Origin: Candidatus Nanoarchaeia archaeon
GTDB taxonomy: Archaea > Nanobdellota > Nanobdellia > SCGC-AAA011-G17 > JAFCDX01
Direction of reading: 5' to 3'
Assembly (NCBI GenBank): GCA_028716945.1
Contig: JAQUOT010000001.1
Span: 62,001-126,000, forward strand
DNA length: 64,000 nucleotides
Shown: positions 18,739-22,660 of the stretch, in pieces
Position numbering within the stretch: position 1 is the first letter of the stretch
Layout: each line of letters begins with the position of its first letter
Notes under the pieces: generated by a model
Database searches by the model: none
The model's input: only the letters and a program-made list of their open reading frames with translations
What the model was told of the DNA's origin: nothing
Position numbers and translations under genes: made by a program

Positions 18739-19629
18739 ATGGAAATAAAACTTCAATCAAAACATATATTGTTTATAATAATTGGAATATTAATTCTTAT
18801 AATTGATTTTATTTATTTTTTAAATGAAAGGTGGTTTAAACCTGTAATAATTATTGGATTCGTCGTAATGGTAATACAATTCTTCCTAGATTTTTTAGCT
18901 GAAAACAAAAGACAGCAAGAAATAGAAACAAAATTCTTAGAATTTGTAAGAGCCTTAGTAGAAACAGTAAAATCTGGTATTCCTATTCCAAAAGCAATTA
19001 TACAAATTTCAACAGAAGATTATGGTGCTTTAACTCCCCATGTTAAAAAAATGGCTGCACAAATAGAGTGGGGTTTTCCTTTGGATGATGTTCTAGAAGT
19101 ATTTGCAAATGATGCAAAGAATAAAGTTATAAATAAATCTATTTCTATAGTTACAGAGGCAGAAAAGTCAGGCGGTAATATGGCAGAGGTGTTACAAGCA
19201 GTAAGCAATTCAGTATATTCTATTAAGAAAATAAAAGAAGAAAGAAAATCTTCTGTATATTCGCAAGTTGTACAAGGGTATATTATCTTTTTTATATTTA
19301 TTGCAATAATGTTAATGATGCAAGTTTATCTTATGCCAAAAATAAGTAATTTGGGTGGAGAAGAATTAAGTATAGGCAGTTCTCCTATTTCCGGAGTTCC
19401 TGGAATTTCCTTAGGAAGTAGTTCAACTGCAAAATTAGATGAAAAAGTCATGGCAAGTACTTTTACTTGGATGGTATTAATACAAGGATTATTTGCAGGA
19501 TTATTAATAGGAAAATTTTCAGAAGGGGAATTAAAATATGGAGTAAAACATAGTTTGATTTTTGTAATTGTTGGATATTTAATTATTTCAACAGTCTCTT
19601 GGACTCCAGCAGCTGTAGGTGTTATATGA
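18739..19629 (+). CDS. TadC/FlaJ-like pilus assembly membrane protein (second)
   Basis: EFVRALVETVKSGIPIPKAI...WGFPLDDVLEVFA...EAEKSGGNMAEVL T2SSF pattern. Confidence 0.85.
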   Translation: MEIKLQSKHILFIIIGILILIIDFIYFLNERWFKPVIIIGFVVMVIQFFLDFLAENKRQQEIETKFLEFVRALVETVKSGIPIPKAIIQISTEDYGALTPHVKKMAAQIEWGFPLDDVLEVFANDAKNKVINKSISIVTEAEKSGGNMAEVLQAVSNSVYSIKKIKEERKSSVYSQVVQGYIIFFIFIAIMLMMQVYLMPKISNLGGEELSIGSSPISGVPGISLGSSSTAKLDEKVMASTFTWMVLIQGLFAGLLIGKFSEGELKYGVKHSLIFVIVGYLIISTVSWTPAAVGVI

Positions 19630-20348
19630 ATAAAAAAGCAATAGGTCATCATTTAGATTGGATGCTTGCAATAGGTTTATTTATGGTATATATCTTATTT
19701 GTAATTGTAATGTTAAAACCAGGAATTGATCCGTTGTATAAAGGATCTGTTTTATTAGATTTAGTTCAAGATAATTTAATGAATGAAATAAATTGGGAAA
19801 TTACCAAAGTTCCTATACATATAAAAATAAGTAGCACTTGTCCTGTAGAAAATGGAGATATAAAAATAAATTTTCCTTTTGATTGGAATGAAAAATTAAG
19901 ATTATTTAGAGAAAATGGGAATGAATTAGCATTTTCTGCAAGCCCAAAAGTAAATTTAATATTAGATGATGTTTGGTCGGGAACTGGAGAAGAAACCCTA
20001 TCTTTAATGTATTCTCCAGATTTTACAAATGGAGAGAGTGGAATTTCTGGAAGTTGCTCTCCAGCAGATTATACATATGGAATTGCTGAAATGATTAAAG
20101 GAATCTGTGATAATGGAAATTGTGGAGATAAAATAGATGTTTTATTTAATAAAAATTATGCAGATGTAAAAACAGAATGGAATTTCCCACCAAATAAAGA
20201 ATTTAGTATACAAATAGAAAATAGAAAATTCCCACAAAATTTAGTTCCTCCTACAAGCGCAGATGTATTTGTAAGACAAATACCAAATTATTTATTAAAG
20301 CAAAATGGAGAATTAATACCTGTAACAATAACAATAATAGCCTGGTAA
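19626..20348 (+). CDS. Pilus-locus membrane-anchored protein
   Basis: MNKKAIGHHLDWMLAIGLFMVYILF; overlaps previous stop by 4 nt. Confidence 0.65.
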   Translation: MNKKAIGHHLDWMLAIGLFMVYILFVIVMLKPGIDPLYKGSVLLDLVQDNLMNEINWEITKVPIHIKISSTCPVENGDIKINFPFDWNEKLRLFRENGNELAFSASPKVNLILDDVWSGTGEETLSLMYSPDFTNGESGISGSCSPADYTYGIAEMIKGICDNGNCGDKIDVLFNKNYADVKTEWNFPPNKEFSIQIENRKFPQNLVPPTSADVFVRQIPNYLLKQNGELIPVTITIIAW

Positions 20349-20349
20349 A

Positions 20350-20787
20350 ATGAATAAAAAAGCATATATAAGGACAGTAGAAGCAGTAATTGCAATATTA
20401 CTTACTTTCATTTTTATAATGACTATATTAACTCCAAAAGAAAGTCAAAAAGAAAATACATTAAGTTCTATTCAAAAAAATACCTTAAAAATAATAGAAT
20501 TGAATAGTTCTTTAAGAAAAAATGTATTAGAATCCCAATTAGGCGTTCCATTTAATCCTACAGACCCAAATAGAATACAACTATATAATACCATAAAAGA
20601 TAATACAAAAAAATTTGTTACTCTTGATTTTAATTTTACAGTATGTGATCAAAAAAATACAAATTGCAATCCAAATATAAAAAATGATTTCATACCTAAG
20701 AATAAAGATGTTTATGCAAAAAGCATTATGATGTCTAGTTTAGATAAAACAAGAATTTTTAGATTGTATTTATGGGAAAAATTCTGA
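20350..20787 (+). CDS. Pilus-locus membrane-anchored protein
   Basis: MNKKAYIRTVEAVIAILLTFIFIMTIL. Confidence 0.65.
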   Translation: MNKKAYIRTVEAVIAILLTFIFIMTILTPKESQKENTLSSIQKNTLKIIELNSSLRKNVLESQLGVPFNPTDPNRIQLYNTIKDNTKKFVTLDFNFTVCDQKNTNCNPNIKNDFIPKNKDVYAKSIMMSSLDKTRIFRLYLWEKF

Positions 20788-20828
20788 AATAGATAATTTT
20801 AAAAGCAATTATTTCTTTAGATTTATAT

Positions 20829-20967
20829 GCCGAGATCGCATAACCTGGTATTGCGCCAGATTACTAAGATAGAGTAAGGCGAACCTCGAAGTAAGGCGAA
20901 CCTGGAAAGGTTGTGCAAGAAAGCTGGTTTCCGAAAGGATGTGCAGGTTCAAATCCTGCTCTCGGCG
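20829..20967 (+). tRNA. tRNA-Ser (class II) with two introns; anticodon GGA or CGA depending on which tandem 3' splice-site copy is used
   Basis: Acceptor GCCGAGA/TCTCGGC, T-arm GCAGG-TTCAAAT-CCTGC, variable arm TCC-GAAA-GGA. Intron 1 BHB: H=CGCC/GGCG, bulges AG|A and AA|C, inner helix TTACT/AGTAA; splicing gives perfect anticodon stem CCAGC/GCTGG with loop CTGGAAA (or CTCGAAA). Second small intron at 37/38. Confidence 0.82.
20874..20907 (+). repeat. Two tandem 17-nt copies GTAAGGCGAACCT[C/G]GAA inside tRNA-Ser
   Basis: 20874-20890 and 20891-20907 are identical at 16 of 17 positions; the single difference is C20887/G20904, i.e. anticodon position 34. Confidence 0.97.
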
Positions 20968-21093: not shown

Positions 21094-21831
21094 ATGCCAA
21101 ACCCAACATTAGAACAAAGAATAGGATTAGGAACACCAGAATTTTCTTTAAAGGAAAATTTATTTAGTATGGGATCAATTTATGCTATCGATAGAGAACT
21201 TCAAGAACCACAAACTGATGAAAAATTAATAGATTTATATGATAAATTAGCAAAAGCTATGAGTGATAATGATAAACCTACTTATAAACAACTTATAAAA
21301 GAATTTGAAATGCACCCTGTAACCGCTACAAAAAAAGCCAAAGAAAATTTTGGTGAAAGAGCAAGACTTTTAAAACCAATTTATGAAGCAAATAAAGAGG
21401 CTGTAATAAAAGAAGTAATTGATCAAATAACAGCAGAAATTAAAGATGAAGATTATGTTAAAGCAACATTTAAAGTAGCAGGTTATTTCCAAAATTTATT
21501 CAAACCAACTAAATTAGATCAAAAAACTGCCGACGAATATGCTTCAGAAGAATCTGCAGCAAATATAGGTGTATCTAGTATGTATAGTGTAACTGGAAAC
21601 ATTGAAGAATACACTCCTCGTCATAAAGCATTACAAGCAAAAGCCTTTGCAAGTAAATACTTTGATATTATTGAACAAGAAAAAGATGGAACAGTAACAA
21701 AATACAAATTCAATGAAGAAAAGTTCAAAAAAGCTATGGAAGACGTTATAGCTGGTTCAATAATTTACAAAAATGCAAAGACAATACAAATTAGACAAGC
21801 ACAAGAAGCTCAAGAACAAGCACAACATTAA
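21094..21831 (+). CDS. Hypothetical alpha-helical protein
   Basis: 245-aa ORF preceded by TATA-like TTTATAAATA. Confidence 0.6.
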   Translation: MPNPTLEQRIGLGTPEFSLKENLFSMGSIYAIDRELQEPQTDEKLIDLYDKLAKAMSDNDKPTYKQLIKEFEMHPVTATKKAKENFGERARLLKPIYEANKEAVIKEVIDQITAEIKDEDYVKATFKVAGYFQNLFKPTKLDQKTADEYASEESAANIGVSSMYSVTGNIEEYTPRHKALQAKAFASKYFDIIEQEKDGTVTKYKFNEEKFKKAMEDVIAGSIIYKNAKTIQIRQAQEAQEQAQH

Positions 21832-21832
21832 T

Positions 21833-22660
21833 TTATTTTTTTTCTATTTTAACTATTTTTTCTCTTTTTAACAAATTATCTGTTATTTTATACATTGCAC
21901 TTACAAAGAGTTCAGCTCTTTTAGAATGCTCATTTAAATCTGCAGGTTTTACAGAAATTATTTTTCCTTGTGAAATACCCCTAGCAAGATCTTGTAATTC
22001 ATGATACCATTCAACATATTTTCTATGTATTTTTCCTTGTCTAACAAAAGTAGAACTTAACATATCTGGAATATGTTCCGGACTTGGAGGGATTTCATTT
22101 GAAGCCATTAGTGCAGCATGTGCTGAATCTACCATAGACCAATATAAACCTTCTACACTAGCAAGCATATTATATCTTGCTTTTGAAAGACTATCAGGGG
22201 CTCTTCTTAAAGCAGTATAAACTGCCTCAGGAGTAGGTCTTATTTTTCCTTTTGCTAATAAAACTTTTAAGGGTTCAAAAAAACCACCAAAGTCAAGCAT
22301 AGCTTGACCATATCTTAAAACATTAATTATAAATGGTTCTCCTACACGAACTTCTTCCCAAAACGCAGATAAAGTAACTGTATTAACATGCACTTTTGTA
22401 GCATATTTTTGTTTAGCAATTAACTTTCCTAGTTCTTCTCTATACCAAGCAATTAATTCTTGATCCCAATCTATTGTACAATCATCAACTATAACAATAA
22501 CATTAATGTCTTTTAAGGTATTATCTGTAGGATTAAATAGAATTACGGTCTTTATAACCTCTTTAAATTGTTTATAAGCTTTAACAGCAAAATCATAAGC
22601 TATCTTATATTCTTCTTTAGTTTTATCTTCAGAAACCCTTAATTTCTTGTATTTCATCAA
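21833..22660 (-). CDS. Hypothetical protein, possible nucleotidyltransferase-like fold
   Basis: 275 aa; NVIVIVDDCTIDWDQELIAWY segment; weak inference. Confidence 0.5.
   Translation of the reverse strand: MMKYKKLRVSEDKTKEEYKIAYDFAVKAYKQFKEVIKTVILFNPTDNTLKDINVIVIVDDCTIDWDQELIAWYREELGKLIAKQKYATKVHVNTVTLSAFWEEVRVGEPFIINVLRYGQAMLDFGGFFEPLKVLLAKGKIRPTPEAVYTALRRAPDSLSKARYNMLASVEGLYWSMVDSAHAALMASNEIPPSPEHIPDMLSSTFVRQGKIHRKYVEWYHELQDLARGISQGKIISVKPADLNEHSKRAELFVSAMYKITDNLLKREKIVKIEKK

What the first reader, a model, noticed from the sequence alone, without database searches (positions are those of the whole stretch)
20829..20967. One tRNA-Ser gene that could encode two anticodons (CGA and GGA) through alternative intron splicing
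Seen in sequence: the tRNA-Ser intron carries tandem 17-nt copies, GTAAGGCGAACCTCGAA (20874-20890) and GTAAGGCGAACCTGGAA (20891-20907). Each copy holds the full 3' half of a BHB motif (inner helix AGTAA, H strand GGCG, bulge AA|C) that pairs with the single 5' half (H CGCC 20854-20857, bulge AG|A, inner TTACT 20861-20865). Each copy also carries anticodon bases 31-37. The only difference between copies is wobble position 34. Using copy 1 removes 20860-20883 (24 nt) and gives CCAGC-CTCGAA.. (anticodon CGA). Using copy 2 removes 20860-20900 (41 nt) and gives CCAGC-CTGGAA.. (anticodon GGA). With a second 37/38 intron ending at 20921, both routes give an 84-nt mature tRNA with a perfect CCAGC/GCTGG stem. 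Cis-alternative splicing giving two anticodons from one tRNA gene is not something I know to be described; trans-split tRNA halves shared between isoacceptors are the nearest precedent.
Basis: partly seen in the sequence, partly recalled or inferred. Interest (0 to 1): 0.95.

Follow-up and report, generated by a model that had tools for sequence, protein, structure and literature searches.

The report
One tRNA gene encoding two tRNAs
In a small family of uncultured archaea, one serine tRNA gene carries two alternative anticodon pieces in a row, and comparative evidence indicates that the cell cuts and joins the transcript in two ways to make two different tRNAs, an arrangement I could not find described anywhere.

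Summary
The dual-anticodon reading survives every comparative test I could run; no RNA data exist here. The tRNA-Ser gene (20829-20967) of a Woesearchaeota-type genome has a shared 5' splice half and two tandem 17-nt units. Each unit holds a 3' bulge-helix-bulge half plus a 7-nt exon (nt 31-37) with anticodon CGA or GGA. Either route gives an intact 84-nt tRNA. The genome has dedicated Ser(UGA) and Ser(GCU) genes but none for CGA or GGA, although UCU is its commonest serine codon. All four held genera of the family keep the tandem; none of 379 other genomes of the class shows it. In relative G001 the pair is CGA+UGA, and there the dedicated gene is GGA: the sets are exactly complementary. Synteny shows that each dual gene sits at the locus of its second anticodon, so the CGA unit has been added at two different loci. 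I also found that the 37/38 intron pairs with the gene's own D-arm, here and in nearly all two-intron tRNA-Ser genes of the order; this clamp implies a splicing order. Use of unit 2 is nearly forced by the genetic code; use of unit 1 rests on conservation.

The parts
20829..20967 (+). tRNA-Ser precursor gene with two mutually exclusive anticodon mini-exons
   Evidence: RF00005 38.6 bits; Ser model R1 70.6 bits
20829..20859 (+). shared 5' exon, tRNA nt 1-30, ending CCAG
20854..20865 (+). shared 5' half of the BHB: H strand CGCC 20854-20857, bulge AG|A 20858-20860, inner strand TTACT 20861-20865
20860..20883 (+). intron 1 of route 1 (24 nt, position 30/31)
20873..20884 (+). 3' half of the BHB in unit 1: AGTAA, GGCG, bulge AA|C
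   Evidence: GGCGAAC identical in G000-G003
20884..20890 (+). mini-exon 1 CCTCGAA (tRNA nt 31-37), anticodon CGA at 20887-20889
   Evidence: identical in four genera
20891..20921 (+). intron 2 of route 1 (31 nt, position 37/38), contains unit 2
20860..20900 (+). intron 1 of route 2 (41 nt), contains unit 1
20890..20901 (+). 3' half of the BHB in unit 2: AGTAA, GGCG, bulge AA|C
   Evidence: conserved as GGCGA[A/T]C
20901..20907 (+). mini-exon 2 CCTGGAA (tRNA nt 31-37), anticodon GGA at 20904-20906
   Evidence: GGA in G000, G002, G003; UGA in G001
20908..20921 (+). intron 2 of route 2 (14 nt, position 37/38); AGGTTGTGC 20908-20916 is the clamp strand
20838..20846 (+). D-arm strand GCATAACCT that pairs with the clamp strand in the precursor
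   Evidence: duplex -14.0 kcal/mol, shuffle p 0.002
20922..20967 (+). shared 3' exon, from tRNA nt 38 to discriminator G73

Best explanation
This is one tRNA gene that yields two serine isoacceptors by mutually exclusive cis-splicing of a 7-nt anticodon mini-exon. Steps. (a) The precursor folds with its 37/38 intron paired to its own D-arm (the clamp); this pairing is inferred from statistics over many genes. (b) The shared 5' half (CGCC-AG|A-TTACT) pairs with the 3' half of either unit to form a BHB; the endonuclease EndA cuts and RtcB joins, so nt 30 is linked to C31 of mini-exon 1 or of mini-exon 2. (c) The joined anticodon stem (CCAGC/GCTGG) then presents the 37/38 intron, which is removed; on route 1 that intron carries unit 2 away, and on route 2 unit 1 has already left with intron 1. 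(d) The two products are identical 84-nt tRNAs except at position 34: CGA (reads UCG) or GGA (reads UCU/UCC). Both keep the serine body, so the code stays unambiguous. Shown by sequence and comparison: the anatomy, the two equally stable folds, conservation, complementary gene sets, presence of EndA and RtcB. Inferred: the actual cleavages and the existence of both RNAs.
For: Own genome: dedicated Ser genes only for UGA and GCU, yet UCU is the commonest serine codon (507 UCU, 44 UCC, 320 UCA, 17 UCG in 19,619 codons of the window). G001: dual gene CGA+UGA, dedicated GGA and GCU; G002: dual CGA+GGA, dedicated UGA and GCU, so each set is exactly complementary. G001's copy 2 also switched position 37 to G, as in most UGA genes of the order. 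The tandem is in 4/4 genera of the family and 0/100 other genomes of the order; a looser pattern over 383 genomes of the class adds only one non-tandem hit. Synteny: the GGA locus holds the dual gene in G000, G002 and G003 and an intronless GGA gene in G001; the UGA locus holds single UGA genes in G000, G002 and outgroup G009 and the dual gene in G001. GGCGAACCTCGAA of unit 1 is identical across these although neighbouring proteins are only about 30-65% identical. The two folds are isoenergetic. The clamp is found in 17 two-intron Ser genes (Fisher p 7.6e-19) and replicated in a held-out set (p 3.7e-5). EndA and RtcB are present.
Against: No RNA evidence. UCG can in principle be read by Ser(UGA), so unit 1 is not strictly required; I found no dedicated CGA gene in 3 of 16 good outgroup genomes. 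The second-intron helix is weak (mismatch at position 34, about 3 pairs). The outer helix is separated from the BHB by an internal loop, so the motif is relaxed. Only a catalytic EndA subunit was found, so the enzyme type that accepts relaxed motifs is not shown. G000 is 97.6% complete in two contigs; a Ser gene in the gap is not excluded. Only four genomes of the family are held.
Confidence: 0.78

Rival explanations
1. Only unit 2 is spliced into tRNA (GGA, or UGA in G001). Unit 1 is an unused duplicate or a structural part of a long intron 1, and UCG codons are read by Ser(UGA) wobble.
For: UCG is rare (17 of 19,619 codons) and U34 can read G; 3 of 16 good outgroup genomes showed no dedicated CGA gene.
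Against: Unit 1 keeps its splice half, bulge and a perfect CGA anticodon loop in four genera and at two different loci, with neighbouring proteins at about 30-65% identity. All four genera lack a detected dedicated CGA gene while 13 of 16 outgroups have one. Unit 1 is as good a splicing partner as unit 2, so it would have to be actively avoided.
Confidence: 0.17
2. Only unit 1 is used; unit 2 is a slippage duplicate.
For: Unit 1 is the proximal 3' half and needs the shorter intron.
Against: It would leave G000 and G002 without a tRNA for UCU/UCC and G001 without one for UCA. Unit 2 is matched to its locus by synteny.
Confidence: 0.02
3. Assembly artefact: two strain variants or two Ser genes collapsed into one locus.
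For: These are metagenome-type assemblies, and in G003 a contig break falls in this gene.
Against: The same tandem occurs in four separately assembled genera with different intron sequences and at two genomic positions; in G000 it lies inside a 536-kb contig.
Confidence: 0.02

Closest known systems
Tri-split and split tRNAs of Caldivirga maquilingensis (trans-splicing; reviewed in PMC4033280)
   Same: A short anticodon-bearing piece between a non-canonical position and 37/38 is exchanged to give synonymous tRNAs; BHB motifs guide the joining.
   Different: There the pieces are separate transcripts joined in trans. Here both pieces lie in one 139-nt gene and are chosen in cis, each excluding the other.
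Nanoarchaeum equitans tRNA-Glu, one 3' half shared by two 5' halves (PMC4033280)
   Same: One RNA segment serves two isoacceptors.
   Different: Trans-splicing of separate genes; no alternative splice sites within one transcript.
Archaeal tRNA genes with two or three introns (e.g. Thermoproteales; PMC4090602, PMC4033280) and the single-unit two-intron Ser genes of this order (G009, G016, G025 etc.)
   Same: Same kind of intron positions and same BHB logic; the single-unit genes of this order share the 30/31 and 37/38 positions and the D-arm clamp.
   Different: One anticodon mini-exon, hence one product; the family studied here has two mini-exons.
Mutually exclusive exons of eukaryotic mRNA genes (own knowledge)
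   Same: Tandem duplicated exons, one chosen per transcript.
   Different: Spliceosome and mRNA there; EndA/RtcB and a 7-nt tRNA exon here.

Membership tests
Archaeal BHB-spliced intron-containing tRNA gene | tRNA body recognised by a covariance model | tested here: met
   RF00005 38.6 bits; R1 70.6 bits
Archaeal BHB-spliced intron-containing tRNA gene | 3-nt bulges flanking a 4-bp helix at the intron 1 junctions | tested here: met
   CGCC/GGCG with AG|A and AA|C bulges plus a 5-bp inner helix for either unit
Archaeal BHB-spliced intron-containing tRNA gene | BHB at the 37/38 intron | tested here: inconclusive
   3' bulge AA|A in all four dual genes, but the helix is weak and mismatched at position 34 (sequence inspection)
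Archaeal BHB-spliced intron-containing tRNA gene | EndA and RtcB encoded in the genome | tested here: met
   PF01974 104 bits; PF01139 477 bits
Archaeal BHB-spliced intron-containing tRNA gene | Cleavage and ligation observed in RNA | not testable with these tools
   no RNA data or bench work available
Split / tri-split tRNA | Mature tRNA assembled from separate transcripts | tested here: not met
   all parts lie within 139 nt on one strand
Split / tri-split tRNA | Anticodon-bearing piece exchangeable to give synonymous tRNAs | tested here: met
   two mini-exons, CGA with GGA or UGA, sharing one tRNA body
Permuted tRNA | 3' half encoded upstream of the 5' half | tested here: not met
   normal 5'-3' order
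tRNA pseudogene / slippage duplicate | No constraint on the duplicate; intact genes elsewhere | tested here: not met
   both units conserved in four genera and the gene sets are complementary

The most novel reading that the evidence does not exclude
A type of tRNA gene not previously described: one gene, two tRNAs, by cis-alternative splicing of tandem anticodon mini-exons. The spare CGA mini-exon has been placed in two different isoacceptor loci of the family, replacing a dedicated tRNA-Ser(CGA) gene, and two precursor folds of equal stability may set the supply ratio of the two isoacceptors.
Probability: 0.7. Interest if true: 0.95.

Novelty: new variant of a known kind. Interest (0 to 1): 0.92.

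Why it matters
It would break the rule that one tRNA gene specifies one anticodon, and would bring alternative splicing, usually thought of as an mRNA process, to a non-coding RNA of the translation machinery. It gives a cis counterpart to the trans-split tRNAs of Caldivirga and suggests how anticodon modules can be duplicated, diverge at one base and move between loci. Practically, standard tRNA finders can report one anticodon or none here (ARAGORN missed the gene), so gene counts in these archaea can look incomplete when they are not. The D-arm clamp gives a testable rule for the order of removal of neighbouring tRNA introns.

Tried and rejected
Looking for a hidden dedicated Ser(CGA) or Ser(GGA) gene with RF00005, a custom Ser model and blastn: none, nor high-identity halves that would suggest a split gene. 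Looking for the same tandem elsewhere: 104 genomes of the order and 383 of the class gave only the four family members; G016 matched the loose pattern, but its second CTGGAG lies in intron 2 without a GGCG half. Searching for a second EndA subunit with PF01974 at E up to 10 found none, so the enzyme type is open. Pfam on neighbouring proteins gave nothing. Literature searches for alternative splicing of tRNA found no such case in the held library; Fujishima 2009 itself is not held, so its content is taken from the review PMC4033280.

Full report
Observation. The sequence at 20829-20967 is as described. It is a tRNA-Ser gene (RF00005 38.6 bits; ARAGORN misses it) with two tandem 17-nt units at 20874-20890 and 20891-20907 that differ only at tRNA position 34. 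Each unit contains AGTAA-GGCG-AA|C, the partner of the single upstream CGCC-AG|A-TTACT, followed by nt 31-37 of a tRNA. It is the only such tandem in the window. Splicing with either unit plus a 37/38 intron ending at 20921 gives an 84-nt cloverleaf. The free minimum-energy fold of the precursor is the unit-2 BHB conformer at -44.7 kcal/mol, and the unit-1 conformer has the same energy.

Gene set of the genome. The window lies in an 803,636-bp, two-contig genome, 97.6% complete. Named relatives are Candidatus Woesearchaeota. RF00005, a Ser-specific covariance model and blastn agree on three Ser loci: this one, Ser(UGA) at C1:151958 and Ser(GCU) at C1:9397. In the window's reading frames UCU is the commonest serine codon (507), with UCC 44, UCA 320 and UCG 17. 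Archaea read UCU/UCC with a GGA anticodon (established knowledge), so without unit 2 the main serine codon would have no cognate tRNA.

Relatives. The family has four held genomes, each of a different genus, and all have the tandem. Unit 1 is always CGA. Unit 2 is GGA in G000, G002 and G003, but UGA in G001 (CCTTGAG, with the G37 seen in most UGA genes of the order). G001 has a dedicated Ser(GGA) gene and no other UGA gene; G002 has a dedicated UGA and no other GGA. G003 is only 81% complete, and its remaining set could not be judged. Thus wherever the set could be read, the two anticodons of the dual gene are exactly those without their own gene. None of the other 100 genomes of the order has the tandem, and a looser pattern over 383 genomes of the class adds only one non-tandem hit. 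In 16 good outgroup genomes I found dedicated CGA genes in 13 and dedicated GGA genes in 15; detection thresholds mean these are minimum counts.

Synteny. The proteins flanking the window's gene (19626-20348, 20350-20787 upstream; 21094-21831, 21833-22657 downstream) flank the intronless Ser(GGA) gene of G001 (L061, 30-61% identity). The upstream ones also flank the dual genes of G002 (L033, 40-44%) and G003 (L086, 37%). Conversely, the dual gene of G001 (L067) lies next to the proteins that flank the single Ser(UGA) genes of G000 (64.5% identity over 231 aa), G002 and outgroup G009. So the dual gene sits at the locus of its unit-2 isoacceptor, and the CGA unit is an addition present at the GGA locus in three genera and at the UGA locus in one. 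The similar intron 1 of G000 and G001 (ATTACT...GAGTAAGGCGAA) points to a common origin and transfer between loci. Gene conversion is plausible, since the dual and UGA genes of G000 share 50 identical 3' bases. This transfer is inference.

Clamp. In the G000 precursor fold, AGGTTGTGC of the 37/38 intron pairs with GCATAACCT of the D-arm. I tested this over the two-intron Ser genes of the order: in 17 genes the 37/38 intron is more complementary to its own D-arm than its shuffles on average, and in 15 of them at p below 0.05 (median p 0.008, Fisher 7.6e-19). In 11 one-intron genes it is not (median p 0.33), with G012 as a single exception. The genes are related, so the combined p overstates the evidence. 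Six genes parsed afterwards (five Ser genes from the last search and the own Thr(UGU) gene) replicate it (Fisher 3.7e-5). One of these, G065 Ser(GCU), shows no clamp (p 0.94). The own tRNA-Thr(UGU) gene is the strongest (-16.3 kcal/mol, p 0.0002). Introns match their own D-loop variant: CAGAT(T) where the loop is AATCTGG in G065 and G048, CAGGTT where it is AACCTGG. The clamp uses D-arm bases needed in the mature tRNA and lies inside intron 2, so intron 1 is probably removed first. That order also makes the two mini-exons mutually exclusive.

Machinery. One EndA gene (PF01974, 104 bits; nearest solved structure the catalytic subunit of Nanoarchaeum equitans, 3iey_A, E 4.8e-40) and RtcB are present. 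A second EndA subunit was not detected, so I cannot say which EndA architecture handles the relaxed motifs.

Assessment. Use of unit 2, which requires skipping unit 1, is nearly forced by codon logic and synteny. Use of unit 1 rests on conservation of a complete splice half and a perfect CGA loop in four genera and at two loci, the absence of detected dedicated CGA genes in the family, and equal fold stability; it is likely but unproven. The nearest published systems are the trans-split tRNAs of Caldivirga, where anticodon pieces are swapped to make synonymous tRNAs, and the shared tRNA-Glu half of N. equitans (PMC4033280). No cis-alternative splicing of a tRNA gene turned up in the held library, which lacks most subscription journals.

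Noticed in passing
L016 1501-1599 (G000:C1:374780-374878); outside the window: tRNA-Thr(UGU) with introns at about 30/31 and 37/38; its 37/38 intron CCACTAGTGAG pairs with its own D-arm (-16.3 kcal/mol, p 0.0002), so the clamp is not limited to Ser genes.
   Followed up: partly
L033, L062, L063, L087, L250, L278, L285: tRNA genes of this order with an additional intron in the T-loop region, so some have three introns.
   Followed up: no
L243 and L246 (G000:C1:251421, C1:488093): tRNA genes with insertions in the D-loop that look like further introns; standard models score them very low, so gene counts by routine tools will be short.
   Followed up: no
G000:C1:498996-501707: The RtcB ligase gene has its homology interrupted by about 1.4 kb after profile position 50, with a 952-aa open frame over the main part, as expected for an intein.
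   Followed up: no
G012 L263: Ser(UGA) gene with only a 37/38 intron that still carries a strong D-arm clamp (p 0.0005); perhaps it has lost its 30/31 intron recently.
   Followed up: no
own tRNA genes, including window 20826-20828: Many tRNA genes of G000 are directly preceded by TAT; RNase P RNA is present, so this is not simply the N. equitans situation.
   Followed up: partly
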